NCBI GenBank assembly: GCA_039801905.1
Contig: JBDRVQ010000014.1
Span: forward strand, 1 to 44,612
Origin: a candidate division WOR-3 bacterium
Lineage (GTDB): Bacteria > Hydrothermota > Tepidihabitantia > Tepidihabitantales > JBDRVQ01
Length of the DNA: 44,612 nt
Direction: 5' to 3'
A program made the position numbers and the translations under genes. The notes beneath the pieces are model-generated. The model was not told the DNA's origin. It was given only the letters and a program-made list of their open reading frames with translations, and did not search any database. Shown in pieces: positions 3 through 43,088 of the stretch. Within the stretch, counting starts at the first letter, position 1. Each line of letters starts with the position of its first letter.

Positions 3-965
3 CGTTGTCCAGTAATTCCTTTACTCACCTCCTTTTCGGCAAAGGTGGCAGGGATGAAATTAAGGGAATATTCTACCAATGGCAAAGCGATGGCGAAGGC
101 ACAGATTATCGCCTGGGAAGAATTTGGTTGTGATGCCACTAACATTTTCTCCGAAGTGGGGATAATTGCGGAAGCGCTCGGTTCGGAATTCTTCTATCCG
201 GAAGATGATCTGCCCGTCCTTAAAACCCCCGCCCTTAATAGAAAAAATATTAAAGAACTTAAAATACCAGACCCTCATGCCACCGGGAGGTTGCCTGTCT
301 ACTTAGAGGCGATTGAACTTACTTATCAAACACTCGGTGATCGGGTGCCAATTCTGGCTTATCTGCCCGCTCCTTTTACTACGGCTATGTTCCTTATTAA
401 TCCGGAAGAATTTCTCATCAATACCATTCAGAATCCTTCTCTGGTGAAAGATCTCCTGGAAGTCTCTTTGCAAGCGGCGATAGAATTTTCCTCTGCCATA
501 ATTGATGCTGGTGGCTTGCCAATCATTGTTGACCCTCTGGCTTCCACCAGTGTAATCAGTCCCAAGGCTTTTAAGGAATTTGCCCTTCCTTATGAAAGGG
601 GACTGATAAATTTTCTCCATCGCTATGACCTTGATTGTATTCTTCACATCTGCGGTGATACCGAACCAATTCTCGATCTCCTCCCGGAGACGAACGCGGA
701 CCTCATCAGTTTGGATAAAGTGCCGATGAGTCTCATTTGCGAGAAACTGGGAAGGAAGATGCGAATTATTGGAAATTTCCCACCAACCAATCTTATCTTC
801 TCTTCGCCCGAGGCAATTAAGGAAGGGGTGAAAGAGATGGTGAAAATTGGCCGGAAAGCGGAAAAGGGTTATATCGCCGCCACCGGTTGTGAGGTTCCGA
901 TTAAAACCCCAAAAGAGAACCTTATGGCATTCGTAGAAGGGGCTAAGGAGGCAGGATGGTATTAG
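3..965 (+). CDS. UroD/MtaA-family cobalamin methyltransferase (5' partial)
   Basis: The reading frame is open to the left edge, so the start lies outside the window; about 320 residues are visible and the first ones already match the family fold. The sequence has a zinc-site pattern of corrinoid:coenzyme methyltransferases: His-x-Cys in HICGD (nt 645-653) and a distal Cys in ATGCEVP (nt 888). This pattern separates MtaA/MtbA/CmuA-type methyltransferases from true uroporphyrinogen decarboxylases, which use no metal. The likely role is methyl transfer from a corrinoid protein to a thiol or other acceptor in the cytoplasm. It overlaps the next gene by 10 bp, so the two are co-translated. The substrate cannot be read from the sequence; partner corrinoid and substrate-specific genes would be upstream, outside the window. 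Confidence 0.8.
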   Translation, partial: RCPVIPLLTSFSAKVAGMKLREYSTNGKAMAKAQIIAWEEFGCDATNIFSEVGIIAEALGSEFFYPEDDLPVLKTPALNRKNIKELKIPDPHATGRLPVYLEAIELTYQTLGDRVPILAYLPAPFTTAMFLINPEEFLINTIQNPSLVKDLLEVSLQAAIEFSSAIIDAGGLPIIVDPLASTSVISPKAFKEFALPYERGLINFLHRYDLDCILHICGDTEPILDLLPETNADLISLDKVPMSLICEKLGRKMRIIGNFPPTNLIFSSPEAIKEGVKEMVKIGRKAEKGYIAATGCEVPIKTPKENLMAFVEGAKEAGWY

Positions 966-3499: not shown

Positions 3500-3517
3500 A
3501 CTTTCCTCCTAACTAAA

Positions 3518-3545
3518 ATTTTAGCAATTTTGAGGAAAAAGTCAA
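3518..3545 (-). promoter_or_regulatory. Promoter of the secreted protein gene
   Basis: On the minus strand TTGACT (3540-3545) and TAAAAT (3518-3523) are separated by 16 nt. Transcription would begin a few nt downstream, leaving a short leader that carries AGGAGG (3505-3510). This is one of the promoters in the window that does have a ribosome site. Confidence 0.65.
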
Positions 3546-4521: not shown

Positions 4522-4549
4522 TTGACATCGGGTTATTATTTAGTAAAAT
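4522..4549 (+). promoter_or_regulatory. Leaderless-type promoter of the purine phosphorylase operon
   Basis: TTGACA (4522-4527), a 16-nt spacer and TAAAAT (4544-4549) are followed by 5 nt and then the ATG at 4555. Transcription should start at or within a base or two of the A of the ATG, giving an mRNA without leader or ribosome site. Confidence 0.7.
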
Positions 4550-4554
4550 TAAAG

Positions 4555-5367
4555 ATGAAAAATTGGCTTGAAGAGGCTGGGCAAAAGATTCGCTCGCTAA
4601 CGAGTTTTAAGCCAGAAGTCGGGATAATCTTAGGAACCGGTCTGGGGAGGTTGGCGAGGGAGATTGAGGAAGTAAAAGTTATTCCCTATTCAGAAATTCC
4701 CCATTTTCCAAAACCAACGGTTGAGAGCCATACCGGAAGGTTAATCTTCGGTTATGTGAAGAAAAGGCCGGTCTGTGCCTTTGAGGGTCGGTTCCATTTT
4801 TATGAAGGATATTCTATGTTTGAGATTACCTTACCGGTGCGGGTGATGAAGAAACTGGGAGTGGAGAAAATGATCGTTTCTAATGCCGCGGGCGGCTTAA
4901 ATCCCCTTTTCCAACCCGGAGATATTATGGTGATAACTGACCATATCAATTTTCTTCCGGATAACCCACTCCGGGGTCTTACCGACCCGGAATTTGGTCC
5001 GCGCTTTCCGGATATGTTTCAGTGCTATGATCCGAAATTGATCGCCTTAGCCGAGGAGGTGGCTCTGGAATTGAAGATACCTTTAAGAAAGGGGGTTTAT
5101 ATCGCCGTCCCCGGTCCGAATCTTGAGACCGCGGCGGAATACCGACTCTTCCGACAGTTCGGGGCGGATGCGGTTGGGATGTCAACCGTACCGGAGGTAA
5201 TTGTTGCCCGGCAGGTGGGAATTAAGGTTTTGGGTTTTTCGGTGATTACCGATATGGGACTACCCGATGCCTTAAAGCCGGTTGATTTGAAAGAGATTCT
5301 CCATAATGCCAGTAAGGCAGAACCGAAATTGACCAGTTTGATTAAAGAGGTGATTGGGAGATTGTGA
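4555..5367 (+). CDS. Purine nucleoside phosphorylase
   Basis: The 270-residue product matches trimeric purine nucleoside phosphorylases, which split purine nucleosides with phosphate to free base and pentose-1-phosphate in salvage. Family motifs visible in order are GIILGTGLGRL (phosphate loop), VESHTGRL, EGRFHFYEG, SNAAGGLNP, TDHINFLPDNPLRG, and VGMSTVPEVIVARQ near the C-terminus, the last being the PNP/MTAP signature. Absence of MTAP-specific context leaves the substrate (inosine/guanosine versus methylthioadenosine) somewhat open, but the VGMST-E region favours PNP. I chose the ATG at 4555 over an in-frame TTG at 4522, because the TTG is part of the -35 box. It is the first gene of an 11-gene operon. 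Confidence 0.88.
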   Translation: MKNWLEEAGQKIRSLTSFKPEVGIILGTGLGRLAREIEEVKVIPYSEIPHFPKPTVESHTGRLIFGYVKKRPVCAFEGRFHFYEGYSMFEITLPVRVMKKLGVEKMIVSNAAGGLNPLFQPGDIMVITDHINFLPDNPLRGLTDPEFGPRFPDMFQCYDPKLIALAEEVALELKIPLRKGVYIAVPGPNLETAAEYRLFRQFGADAVGMSTVPEVIVARQVGIKVLGFSVITDMGLPDALKPVDLKEILHNASKAEPKLTSLIKEVIGRL

Positions 5368-17036: not shown

Positions 17037-18593
17037 TTAGTGGGCATAACCAATGGTCTTCTTTTCTCGGATTACTGAAATCTTAATTGTTCCGGGGTAT
17101 TTTATCTCCTTCTCGTAGGCATCAATCACCTTTTGTAAGATTATAGCAATCTCAGCGTCGGAGACCTTTTCCGGATCAACCAGAATCCTCACTTCGCGCC
17201 CCGCCTGCATAGCATAAGCCTTTTCTACGCCCGGAATGGTGGAGGCGATCTCTTCTAATTTGGTGATCCTTTTGATATAGGTCTCATAACTCTCCCGCCG
17301 CACTCCGGGTCGGGAGCCGGAGATGGAATCCGCCGCCGCCACTAAGAAGGAGTAGGGGTTAGTAAAGGGAACCTCTTCGTGGTGGCTGGCAATGGCGTTA
17401 ACGATTATCTCATCTTCATTGAACTGTTGGGCAATGGCGGCACCAATCTGGGCATGGGTTCCTTCCTGATTGCGGTCAGCGATTTTGCCGATATCGTGGA
17501 GGATACCCGCCCGGCGGGCAAGAGCCGGATCAAGTTTTAACTCACTCGCCATAATTGCTGCCAAGTGGGCAACCTCCTTGGAGTGGAGAAGAAGGTTTTG
17601 GCCATAACTACTTCGGAATTTCATCTTGCCGATATAGGAGAGGAGTTCCGGATGGATGCCGACCAAACCTAACTCTATGGCGCAGGCTTCACCCTCTTTC
17701 TCCACGGCGGTGGCGATCTCCTTCTTTGCCAATTCAATCACTTCCTCAATTCGGGCGGGGTGAATCCGACCATCGGCAATTAGTTTCTCCATCGCTAATT
17801 GGGCAATCGCCCGGCGCATCGGGTCAAATGAGGAAAGGGTAATTACCCCCGGGGTATCGTCAATGATTACTTCCACCCCGGTGAGATTTTCAAAGGTTCG
17901 GATATTTCTTCCTTCCCGGCCGATGATCCTCCCTTTGATCTCTTCGGAGGGGATGGAGACGACACTCACCGTTGATTCTTGGGTTTGGGAGACCGCACAC
18001 CGCTGAATTGCCTGGAGGATAAATTCCCGAGCGTTCAATTCCGCGGCTTTTATCGCCTCTTCCCGCATCTCTTGGAAGAGTTGCGCCGCTTCCAGTTTTA
18101 CCTTCTCTTCTAAGGTTTTTAAAATTTCCTTCCTTGCCTGTGCTTCATCAATATTGGCAATCCGCAGGAGGCGCTCGTTCGCTTCTTTAATTAGTTGGTC
18201 TAAACGCTCCCCCTTCACCTTAATCGTCCGCTCTTTTGTCTCCTGTTCCCTTTCCCGGCGCAAGAGGACATTTTCCTTCGCCTCCAATTCTTTTTTCCAG
18301 TCGCGCAGACTAAATTCCCGTTCCGAGAGTTCCTTCTCCCATCTTTTTAACTCTTCCTTCTTTTTTTCTAAGAGGAGAAGATTTTCTTCCCTCTCTCTTT
18401 TTAAGTTCTCCTTAGTTTCCCTTTCTATCCGTTCTTTATATTCTTTAACCTCTCTCTTTGCCTCTTCTAAGATGCTCTCCCGTCTCTTTTCTATATCTTT
18501 CAATTTCTGGTTGAATACCCTCTGGTTAATTAGGTAACCAAAGGCAAAACCAATGAGACAAGCCAAGATAAACAGAAATAAAGGCGTTACCAT
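17037..18593 (-). CDS. rny: Ribonuclease Y
   Basis: The 518-residue protein is the membrane-bound endoribonuclease that starts mRNA decay. In order: one N-terminal membrane helix (residues about 4-22), a long charged coiled coil (about 25-190), a KH domain with IKGRIIGREGRNIRTFENLTG, and an HD domain with GILHDIGKI and AIASHHEE, then a C-terminal domain ending RISVIREKKTIGYAH-like (SVIREKKTIGYAH). I placed the start at the ATG at 18593, because GGAGG lies 6 nt upstream; an upstream in-frame start at 18710 would add 39 residues encoded by the RNA gene region and is rejected. ymdB follows directly. Confidence 0.93.
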   Translation of the reverse strand: MVTPLFLFILACLIGFAFGYLINQRVFNQKLKDIEKRRESILEEAKREVKEYKERIERETKENLKREREENLLLLEKKKEELKRWEKELSEREFSLRDWKKELEAKENVLLRREREQETKERTIKVKGERLDQLIKEANERLLRIANIDEAQARKEILKTLEEKVKLEAAQLFQEMREEAIKAAELNAREFILQAIQRCAVSQTQESTVSVVSIPSEEIKGRIIGREGRNIRTFENLTGVEVIIDDTPGVITLSSFDPMRRAIAQLAMEKLIADGRIHPARIEEVIELAKKEIATAVEKEGEACAIELGLVGIHPELLSYIGKMKFRSSYGQNLLLHSKEVAHLAAIMASELKLDPALARRAGILHDIGKIADRNQEGTHAQIGAAIAQQFNEDEIIVNAIASHHEEVPFTNPYSFLVAAADSISGSRPGVRRESYETYIKRITKLEEIASTIPGVEKAYAMQAGREVRILVDPEKVSDAEIAIILQKVIDAYEKEIKYPGTIKISVIREKKTIGYAH

Positions 18594-18652
18594 TTTTTCC
18601 TCCAAAAGAAACTCCCCGCTTGTGTCGTGTCGGTAGCGGTCTCTGAACCTAA

Positions 18653-18829
18653 AAAAATAAGTGGGTGCCTTAAAGATGCGTCCTGCTTTTCTCAACTCGG
18701 GAGTAAGCATTCGGCATCGGCATCCGGCTCCCTTTCTTTAGGTGTTGGCTCAAGACCTTTTAACCGATCACGCACACCGCAGGGAGCAAACAGCACCAAA
18801 TTTCCAATGAGCAATTCCTAATCTTTCTT
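18653..18829 (-). ncRNA. ssrS: Probable 6S RNA
   Basis: A 245-bp gap between a small coiled-coil gene and rny holds a minus-strand RNA of about 177 nt, bounded by a strong promoter (18836-18864) and the U-rich TTATTTTTTT at 18660-18651. The size equals that of known 6S RNAs. It can form a closing stem (GGTGC with GCACC, TGC-TCC with GGA-GCA), then an open central part, then internal helices GGTGT/ACACC and GGGAG/CTCCC. Synteny (pheT, zapA/zapB-like gene, RNA, rny, ymdB) is where 6S RNA is found in several phyla. Known role: binds housekeeping RNA polymerase like an open promoter. I could not run a covariance model, so the assignment stays probable. Confidence 0.65.
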
Positions 18830-21279: not shown

Positions 21280-21307
21280 ATAATAATCCCCTTTTTCTAA
21301 ATGTCAA
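21280..21307 (-). promoter_or_regulatory. Leaderless-type promoter of pheT
   Basis: On the minus strand TTGACA (21302-21307), a 16-nt spacer and TATTAT (21280-21285) are followed by TTTTAG and the ATG at 21273. No ribosome site fits between the -10 box and the start. It drives the pheT-rny-glnA unit. Confidence 0.7.
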
Positions 21308-23656: not shown

Positions 23657-23685
23657 TTGACTTTCTTCCTTACTATTTTTATAAT
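23657..23685 (+). promoter_or_regulatory. Promoter of tRNA-Arg and the nitroreductase gene
   Basis: TTGACT (23657-23662), 17-nt spacer and a perfect TATAAT (23680-23685), with 7 nt to the first base of the tRNA. The transcript therefore begins at or next to the mature tRNA 5' end. Confidence 0.75.
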
Positions 23686-23692
23686 TCTTTAT

Positions 23693-23765
23693 GCGCCTGT
23701 AGCTCAGTGGATAGAGCGGCGGACTCCGGATCCGCAGGTCGCGCGTTCAAATCGCGTCAGGCGCT
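23693..23765 (+). tRNA. tRNA-Arg (anticodon CCG)
   Basis: A full cloverleaf is seen: acceptor GCGCCTG/CAGGCGC, D-stem GCTC/GAGC, anticodon stem GCGGA/TCCGC with loop CTCCGGA (anticodon CCG at 23726-23728, reading CGG), variable loop AGGTC and T-arm GCGCG-TTCAAAT-CGCGT. CCA is not encoded. The discriminator base would be T (23765), unusual for arginine tRNA, and it is the first of a run of six T. A nitroreductase gene begins 10 bp after. Confidence 0.95.
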
Positions 23766-31135: not shown

Positions 31136-31163
31136 AATATACCCCAAGGTTTTCGGTTGTCAA
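31136..31163 (-). promoter_or_regulatory. Promoter of the lysS operon
   Basis: Minus strand TTGACA (31158-31163), 16-nt spacer, TATATT (31136-31141), 11 nt to the ATG at 31124. The leader would be only about 4 nt and no Shine-Dalgarno sequence is present. Confidence 0.65.
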
Positions 31164-34035: not shown

Positions 34036-34059
34036 AGACACCTCCGTATTTTCATAACT

Positions 34060-34088
34060 ATTATATAAAGAGAAATTCCTTTTGTCAA
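34060..34088 (-). promoter_or_regulatory. Promoter of the repeat-rich surface protein
   Basis: Minus strand TTGACA (34083-34088), 17-nt spacer, TATAAT (34060-34065). The message would have a leader of about 18 nt with a strong Shine-Dalgarno. A perfect palindrome GTGAATTTCAC (34091-34101) sits just upstream of the -35 box and could be an operator. Confidence 0.75.
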
Positions 34089-34717: not shown

Positions 34718-34745
34718 TTGACACTGCCCACTATTTTGGTAGAAT
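34718..34745 (+). promoter_or_regulatory. Leaderless-type promoter of the flavodoxin operon
   Basis: TTGACA (34718-34723), 16-nt spacer, TAGAAT (34740-34745), AGGTA and then ATG at 34751. The -10 box ends 5 nt from the start codon. Confidence 0.72.
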
Positions 34746-38641: not shown

Positions 38642-38669
38642 ATTCTAAAAAAGGGGGAGGAAAAGTCAA
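38642..38669 (-). promoter_or_regulatory. Leaderless-type promoter of the spermidine-synthase-like gene
   Basis: Minus strand TTGACT (38664-38669), 16-nt spacer, TAGAAT (38642-38647), then AGCCT and the ATG at 38636. Confidence 0.7.
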
Positions 38670-38685: not shown

Positions 38686-38713
38686 TTGATTTTTGGCTGG
38701 GGATTTATATAAT
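38686..38713 (+). promoter_or_regulatory. Leaderless-type promoter of the uracil methyltransferase
   Basis: TTGATT (38686-38691), 16-nt spacer, TATAAT (38708-38713), CAGTA and the ATG at 38719. The two divergent promoters fill the 82-bp gap. Confidence 0.7.
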
Positions 38714-38718
38714 CAGTA

Positions 38719-39834
38719 ATGTCAGTCATCCGAGAAGAGAGGATCTGCCCTTACTACCGAAACTGTGGGGGTTGTGATTATCAAGATATAGATTACAAAG
38801 AGCAGTTAGCAAGAAAGATGAGAATGATCAGGGAGTTTTTTCCCGGGCAAGAAGTGAGAATTTTCCCTTCCTCTCCTTTTCACTACCGCAACCGGATGGA
38901 CTTTGCCTTCTTTCCCGGAGGGATTGGCTTCCGGCGGAAAGGGCGCTGGGATAAATTTGTTGATGTGGAATATTGTCTTATCGCCAAAGAGAGGATTAAT
39001 CAACTTTTAAGGGAGGTGCGGGAATTTTTTAGGGACGCTGACCCCTTTGATGTGCGAAACCACACGGGAACCTTTCGCTACGCGGTCATCCGAAGTGTTT
39101 TCACTTCCAGTATTTCTTTCGTAATTAATCAAGATAGTAAGGAGAAAGAAAGGGCGAGAAAGATGGTTGAGGATTTTGCCTCTTTCACCTCAGCGGAAAA
39201 TATCTTAATTGTTGAAGTGCCTCCTAATACCGATGTGAGCATCGGGGATAAATATCGCCTCATTAAAGGGACGGACCTTCTATTAACTAAAATTAACGGG
39301 AAGGAGTTTTATTTTCACAGCCAGGGGTTTTTCCAGGTAAATGATGAACTGATACCCAGACTGCACCAATACGTGGCGGAGATTTTAGAAAGGTACGAGA
39401 CAAAATATGCCCACCTTCTTGACCTCTACGGCGGGGTGGGGGTTTTTGGGATTATGAATCGGGAAAGGTTCCGGTCGGTAATTGTTATTGACAACCATCC
39501 AGGCTCCTTAAATTTAGTAGAAAGAAATTGTGCCCTAAATAAGATAGAGCAAATCCAACCGGTATTATTGGAAGATAGAGAGATAAGAAAACTATCCTTG
39601 GAAAAACCCCTCTTTGTAATTGCCGATCCACCCCGGGCGGGTATCCATCCCAAGGCGCTCCGCTACTTAAACGGGATGAAGCCCGAATTACTAATCTATG
39701 TCTCTTGCCACTTTAAGCAATTGGTAAAAGATTTAGAAAAACTAACTAACTTCCAGATAAAATCCCTCGCCTTTTTTGACTTCTTTCCCCAGACAAAAAA
39801 TATGGAGTTGGTGGTGGAACTTAAAGGGTCATAG
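38719..39834 (+). CDS. RNA (uracil-5-)-methyltransferase, RlmCD/RlmD-type
   Basis: The 371-residue enzyme methylates uracil C5 in rRNA (or tRNA). It has a [4Fe-4S] cluster set: Cys10, Cys16, Cys19 (CPYYRNCGGCDYQ) and Cys86 (VEYCLIAK). The SAM domain shows FFQVN, LDLYGGVGVFG, the DPPRAGIHP catalytic block and the nucleophile Cys330 in IYVSCH. Unlike RumA of E. coli it has no N-terminal TRAM domain. The ATG directly follows a promoter, so the start is well supported. Confidence 0.87.
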   Translation: MSVIREERICPYYRNCGGCDYQDIDYKEQLARKMRMIREFFPGQEVRIFPSSPFHYRNRMDFAFFPGGIGFRRKGRWDKFVDVEYCLIAKERINQLLREVREFFRDADPFDVRNHTGTFRYAVIRSVFTSSISFVINQDSKEKERARKMVEDFASFTSAENILIVEVPPNTDVSIGDKYRLIKGTDLLLTKINGKEFYFHSQGFFQVNDELIPRLHQYVAEILERYETKYAHLLDLYGGVGVFGIMNRERFRSVIVIDNHPGSLNLVERNCALNKIEQIQPVLLEDREIRKLSLEKPLFVIADPPRAGIHPKALRYLNGMKPELLIYVSCHFKQLVKDLEKLTNFQIKSLAFFDFFPQTKNMELVVELKGS

Positions 39835-40010: not shown

Positions 40011-40039
40011 TTGACATAACTTCTTAACTTATCTATAAT
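40011..40039 (+). promoter_or_regulatory. Leaderless-type promoter of the small basic protein and HD hydrolase
   Basis: TTGACA (40011-40016), 17-nt spacer, perfect TATAAT (40034-40039), AGATA and the ATG at 40045. Another TTGACA-like box is at 39983-39988. Confidence 0.75.
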
Positions 40040-43060: not shown

Positions 43061-43088
43061 TTGACTTTGAGAAGGAGAGCATTAAAAT
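43061..43088 (+). promoter_or_regulatory. Promoter of glyQ
   Basis: TTGACT (43061-43066), 16-nt spacer and TAAAAT (43083-43088) with 8 nt to the ATG at 43097. Leader of about one or two nt. Confidence 0.65.

What the first reader, a model, noticed from the sequence alone, without database searches (positions are those of the whole stretch)
4522..4557. Leaderless-mRNA promoter design shared by many genes
The distance from the last base of the -10 box to the ATG is 5 nt for the purine phosphorylase, capA-like, flavodoxin, spermidine-synthase-like, uracil methyltransferase and small basic ORF genes, and 6 nt for pheT (promoters at 4522, 23588, 34718, 38642, 38686, 40011 and 21280). The -35 box is TTGAC[A/T] or TTGATT, with spacers of 16 or 17 nt. 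glyQ (8 nt) and lysS (11 nt) are close to this. None has a Shine-Dalgarno sequence, whereas internal operon genes and the two surface-protein operons do. Leaderless initiation as the main mode for first genes is known in a few lineages, but the strict 5-nt rule in a diderm of this kind is notable and would help gene-start calling.
Basis: partly seen in the sequence, partly recalled or inferred. Interest (0 to 1): 0.75.

Follow-up and report, generated by a model that had tools for sequence, protein, structure and literature searches.

The report
Widespread leaderless genes in uncultured bacterium
In this bacterium, which belongs to a poorly known phylum, about 40% of the genes that begin a transcription unit have a standard promoter placed so close to the start codon that the messenger RNA should begin at or within a few bases of AUG, with no ribosome-binding site; this way of starting genes is known elsewhere but seems not to have been described for this group.

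Summary
All seven listed promoters are at the stated places. In 844 kb (half the genome), with starts called blind to promoters, 87 of 220 first-in-unit genes (39.5%) carry TTGACa-16/17-TAtaaT ending 5-9 nt before the ATG, against 3 of 380 operon-internal genes and ~1% of shuffles. A test without gene calling agrees: ATG follows TTGAC-TANNNT sites at gaps 5/6/7 in 53/34/26 cases, background ~6 each. "Strict 5 nt" is too strong: the mode is 5 (about half), then 6, 7, 8. Genes whose -10 lies 5-8 nt away have an SD in 4% of cases; genes with the same promoter 15-71 nt away in ~76%, and the 16S tail keeps its anti-SD. So one sigma-70-type promoter serves two modes set by its distance: leaderless (A of AUG at or near +1) and leadered with SD. 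"Main mode for first genes" is fair only as the largest single class. The trait extends through the order and class (up to 240 strict sites per genome); parts of the phylum lack the TTGAC form. Leaderless TANNNT genes are well known (Actinobacteria, Deinococcota and others), so this is a new member of a known kind. Transcript 5' ends were not available.

The parts
4522..4527 (+). -35 TTGACA of purine-nucleoside phosphorylase gene
4544..4549 (+). -10 TAAAAT, 5 nt before ATG 4555
   Evidence: PNP identity
4555..5367 (+). purine-nucleoside phosphorylase, leaderless first gene
34718..34745 (+). promoter TTGACA-16-TAGAAT, 5 nt before ATG 34751 (flavodoxin)
38642..38669 (-). promoter TTGACT-16-TAGAAT, 5 nt before ATG 38636 (spermidine-synthase-like)
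38686..38713 (+). promoter TTGATT-16-TATAAT, 5 nt before ATG 38719 (RlmD-like methyltransferase)
   Evidence: HMM match from residue 2 supports start 38719
40011..40039 (+). promoter TTGACA-17-TATAAT, 5 nt before ATG 40045 (58-aa basic ORF)
21280..21307 (-). promoter TTGACA-16-TATTAT, 6 nt before ATG 21273 (pheT)
43061..43088 (+). promoter TTGACT-16-TAAAAT, 8 nt before ATG 43097 (glyQ)
31136..31163 (-). promoter TTGACA-16-TATATT, 11 nt before ATG 31124 (lysS); short leader of a few nt expected
3505..3545 (-). contrast case: same promoter type (TTGACT-16-TAAAAT) 18 nt before ATG 3499, with SD AGGAGG in the leader (T9SS-tailed protein)
34039..34088 (-). contrast case: TTGACA-17-TATAAT 24 nt before ATG 34035, with SD GGAGGTG in the leader
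23657..23685 (+). promoter TTGACT-17-TATAAT, 7 nt before the mature 5' end of tRNA-Arg(CCG)

Best explanation
These are ordinary housekeeping (sigma-70-type) promoters, TTGACa-N16-TAtaaT, placed so that the +1 position falls on or within about 3 nt of the A of the start codon; the mRNAs have essentially no 5' leader. Ribosomes would start them as leaderless mRNAs, recognising the 5'-terminal AUG without SD pairing (known elsewhere to favour 70S or IF2-assisted initiation). The same promoter placed 15 nt or more upstream yields a leader with an SD. The distance from promoter to ATG thus sets the initiation mode. Shown: promoter geometry, bimodal distance, mutual exclusion with SD, ATG preference, spread through the clade. 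Inferred: exact transcript 5' ends and the ribosomal pathway.
For: Peak of TANNNT at gaps 5-7 before divergent and isolated genes and none before tight operon genes. Caller-free ATG peak at gaps 5-8 after TTGAC-TANNNT, absent with wrong spacers and for GTG, TTG, CTG, AAG, ACG. De novo EM gives TTGACA (8.5 bits), TATAAT (6.0 bits), spacer 16 (86%), gap 5-8; 86 of 220 first genes against 2 of 220 shuffles and 5 of 380 tight genes (fixed cut-off 87/220 vs 3/380). SD in 4% of genes at gap 5-8 against ~76% at gap 15-71 (Fisher p ~1e-18). Anti-SD intact: GGATCACCTCCTTT. Strict pattern 157 sites against 1 for the reversed pattern and 11 for a gap shifted by 20. tRNA genes carry the same promoter, commonly 7-9 nt before the mature 5' end. 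Ortholog pairs with G003 tend to keep the placement (7/14 vs 5/30, p 0.03).
Against: No RNA data. A gap of 5 puts A at the 6th base after the -10, one short of the E. coli mode (general knowledge), so part of the initiation could fall inside the codon. The 76 first genes with neither strong signal are unexplained (miscalled starts, other sigma factors, weak SD). The genome is a 58-contig draft and only half was scanned gene by gene. The ortholog test is small.
Confidence: 0.93

Rival explanations
1. The AT-rich box before the ATG is a translation signal (S1-binding or Kozak-like, as in Bacteroidota) and transcription starts farther upstream.
For: Diderms of the FCB kind often lack SD, and A/T bias upstream of starts is known there (PMC6847099; PMC9581028). 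S1-domain proteins, including a six-domain one, are encoded.
Against: The box is tied to TTGAC at 16 bp and the same two-box element precedes tRNA genes, which are not translated. SD is in use in this genome.
Confidence: 0.03
2. Short-leader mRNAs: transcription starts 1-5 nt before the ATG for many of these genes, so they are near-leaderless rather than exactly leaderless. This can be true together with the main explanation.
For: Gaps of 7-11 exist (lysS 11, glyQ 8), and bacterial RNA polymerase can choose +1 over several bases (general knowledge).
Against: The mode at 5-6 places the A of ATG at the usual +1; no genes with a strong promoter have gap 0-4, as expected if +1 must not pass the A.
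Confidence: 0.25
3. Chance: AT-rich intergenic DNA yields -10-like hexamers anywhere and the reader chose those near ATGs.
For: TANNNT alone is common (baseline ~3 per position in 126 genes).
Against: Shuffles, wrong spacers, shifted gaps, reversed patterns and operon-internal genes all lack the peak; E. coli shows none.
Confidence: 0.005

Closest known systems
TA-led leaderless genes of Actinobacteria (Mycobacterium, Streptomyces, Corynebacterium)
   Same: TANNNT a few nt before the start codon, leader absent, SD genes coexist in the genome (PMC3160421; PMC3898074)
   Different: Here the -35 TTGACa is strong, with a near-fixed 16-bp spacer, and starts are almost only ATG (83 ATG, 2 GTG, 1 TTG); the genome is 44% GC
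-10 region adjacent to ORFs in Deinococcus-Thermus
   Same: -10 motif next to the ORF, leaderless mRNA, coexistence with SD genes; about 30% of ORFs there (PMC12340547)
   Different: There the -10 motif alone suffices and a -35 enhances expression; here the -35 is nearly invariant. By our count about 17% of all genes here (118/688)
Mixed leaderless/SD genomes predicted by GeneMarkS-2
   Same: Leaderless and SD genes in one genome, predicted in 21.6% of representative bacterial genomes (PMC9581028)
   Different: That paper describes the FCB group as having non-canonical AT-rich RBSs; this T9SS-bearing genome is a mixed leaderless/SD one

Membership tests
Leaderless (TA-led) bacterial genes | TANNNT -10 box about 12 bp (first T) upstream of the start codon, enriched over background | tested here: met
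Leaderless (TA-led) bacterial genes | No SD in these genes | tested here: met
   4% with SD>=5 at gap 5-8, below the 18% background
Leaderless (TA-led) bacterial genes | Concentrated in first genes of transcription units | tested here: met
   87/220 first vs 3/380 tight
Leaderless (TA-led) bacterial genes | Transcript 5' end at the start codon | not testable with these tools
   no RNA data for this genome
Leaderless (TA-led) bacterial genes | Translation of the 5'-terminal AUG without a leader | not testable with these tools
   needs ribosome profiling or reporter assays
Sigma-70-type promoters | TTGACA and TATAAT hexamers at a 16-18 bp spacing | tested here: met
   EM seeded softly with the consensus keeps TTGACA/TATAAT and learns spacer 16-17 from a flat prior
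Bacteroidota-type SD-less initiation | SD absent from mRNAs genome-wide | tested here: not met
   SD>=5 in 39% of tight and 44% of non-leaderless first genes against 18% background, about 76% of genes with promoter gap 15-71

The most novel reading that the evidence does not exclude
A whole class of an uncultivated phylum uses a near-fixed minimal module (TTGAC, 16 bp, TANNNT, 5-8 bp, ATG) as its commonest gene start, and within the same phylum the leaderless mode persists while the -35 box changes (clades with TATAAT-ATG enrichment but no TTGAC), so gain, loss and change of leaderless promoters can be traced within one phylum.
Probability: 0.5. Interest if true: 0.55.

Novelty: new member of a known kind. 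Interest (0 to 1): 0.42.

Why it matters
It extends abundant bacterial leaderless expression to a clade not named in the surveys read here, with a promoter strong enough to be found by eye. It gives a practical start-calling rule: an ATG 5-8 nt after TTGAC-16-TANNNT beats longer ORFs, and here a -35 TTG is itself a false PNP start. The clean split between leaderless and SD genes driven by the same promoter offers a natural comparison of the two initiation modes.

Tried and rejected
Conservation of the PNP promoter itself: in the relatives that could be read, the PNP start directly follows coding-like sequence with no such promoter, so this promoter is not conserved there. Secreted proteins preferring SD: trend only (42% vs 29% with a hydrophobic N terminus, p 0.11). 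Back-to-back divergent promoters with -35 boxes 1 bp apart as a clade-wide module: an exact pattern search found one site, in this genome only. The 6S 5' end as a calibrated +1: no clear -10 at the Rfam boundary.

Full report
CHECK OF THE SITES. The window is contig C14 of a 1.70-Mb draft genome in 58 contigs. Gaps between the last base of the -10 and the ATG are 5 (six genes) and 6 (pheT); glyQ has 8 and lysS 11, with identities confirmed by NCBIfam. Spacers are 16, except 17 for the small ORF. None of the seven has an SD of five or more matching bases. The two surface-type genes use the same promoter 18 and 24 nt upstream, with AGGAGG and GGAGGTG before the ATG.

GENOME-WIDE TEST. I took 40 stretches of 20 kb plus the window (844,612 bases) and called genes with a coding-potential model that sees neither promoters nor SD (699 genes). 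Before divergent first genes, TANNNT shows 30, 18 and 9 hits at gaps 5, 6 and 7 (n = 126, typical background ~3); tight operon genes (n = 380) show no peak. A test that needs no gene calls: of 378 TTGAC-(15..19)-TANNNT sites, ATG follows at gaps 5, 6, 7, 8 in 53, 34, 26, 16 cases against about 6 elsewhere. GTG, TTG, CTG, AAG and ACG show no such peak, and wrong spacers are flat.

MODEL. A two-box EM on 220 first genes, softly seeded with the consensus boxes and with flat gap and spacer priors, converged on TTGACA (8.5 bits) and TATAAT (6.0 bits), spacer 16 (86%) or 17 (13%), gap 5 (0.31), 6 (0.18), 7 (0.11), 8 (0.05). With a fixed cut-off, 87 of 220 first genes (39.5%), 3 of 380 tight genes and 1.2% of shuffles qualify; over all genes 118 of 688 (17%) do. 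Ten more first genes could be rescued by another nearby ATG (control 3). Start codons of the leaderless set: 83 ATG, 2 GTG, 1 TTG.

TWO MODES FROM ONE PROMOTER. Among first and loosely spaced genes with a strong promoter, gaps 0-4 are empty, gaps 5-8 hold 95 genes (SD>=5 in 4%), gaps 9-14 hold 15 (none with SD), gaps 15-71 hold 45 (about 76% with SD) (p ~1e-18). The 16S rRNA ends GGATCACCTCCTTT, so the anti-SD is intact. IF3 and S1-domain proteins are encoded. About a third of first genes (76/220) show neither strong signal.

RELATIVES. TTGAC-N17-TANNNT-N5-7-ATG was counted in 147 genomes of the phylum and compared with the same pattern at gap 25-27. Own genome 157 against 11; same class for example G030 229/53, G028 196/20, G029 177/11; order family f3 lower (e.g. 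G002 55/20). A large part of the phylum (G057-G096) is at background. With TATAAT alone some of those still show a near-ATG excess (G093 138 vs 73, G095 45 vs 10, G078 43 vs 13), while other families show none (G046 365/367, G131 177/189). So leaderless placement may be wider than the TTGAC form; this is suggestive, not shown. E. coli processed the same way shows no excess (4 of 77, 6.8 expected). In G003, 76 of 168 first genes score as leaderless against 14 for the shifted gap; orthologs of leaderless genes keep the placement in 7/14 against 5/30 for other first or loosely spaced genes.

tRNA GENES. Most tRNA genes that begin a unit carry the same promoter, commonly ending 7-9 nt before the mature 5' end, which supports that the element is a promoter and not a translation signal. 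RNase P RNA is present.

MECHANISM. A -10 ending 5-8 nt before ATG puts the A of AUG at or near +1. The simplest account is leaderless mRNA translated from the 5'-terminal AUG, with SD-led translation where the same promoter lies farther upstream. The transcript ends and ribosomal pathway are inferred.

COMPARISON. Leaderless genes with a TANNNT box about 12 bp (first T) upstream of the start are known in many bacteria, above 20% of genes in Actinobacteria and Deinococcus-Thermus (PMC3160421), experimentally supported in Deinococcus (PMC12340547), and predicted in 21.6% of representative bacterial genomes (PMC9581028). No paper linking leaderless mRNA to the candidate phyla I tried by name turned up among those listed, but the phylum here is not identified. 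Differences here: a near-invariant -35, a near-fixed 16-bp spacer and near-exclusive ATG. Verdict: real and ordinary in kind, apparently new for the clade.

Noticed in passing
window 18593-18788 (-): A 6S RNA (Rfam, 78.7 bits, 18609-18788) lies directly upstream of RNase Y; the RNase Y start is probably ATG 18593 with TTTTGGAGGAAAAA before it, not the longer ORF start at 18710, so 6S and rny may share a transcript.
   Followed up: partly
window 23657-23765 (+) and tRNA genes on C1, C10, C11, C18: tRNA promoters commonly end 7-9 nt before the mature tRNA 5' end, so tRNA precursors should have almost no 5' leader although RNase P RNA is present.
   Followed up: partly
own genome C5:29653-29723, C8:5954-6024, C11:18038-18107, C11:23153-23223: Divergent leaderless gene pairs with 68-69 bp intergenic regions in which the two -35 boxes are 1-3 bp apart, the minimal packing of two such promoters.
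   Followed up: partly
G057-G096 (other families of the phylum): TTGAC-type leaderless signal absent, but TATAAT close to ATG still enriched in several (G093, G095, G078), suggesting a different -35 or none.
   Followed up: partly
window 4522 and 38719-38896: Naive start calling goes wrong here: the longest PNP ORF starts at the TTG of the -35 box, and a coding-only caller starts RlmD 177 bases too late.
   Followed up: yes
bases just before ATG in leaderless genes of the own genome: In leaderless genes the base before ATG is T in 63 of 118 and C in only 4.
   Followed up: no
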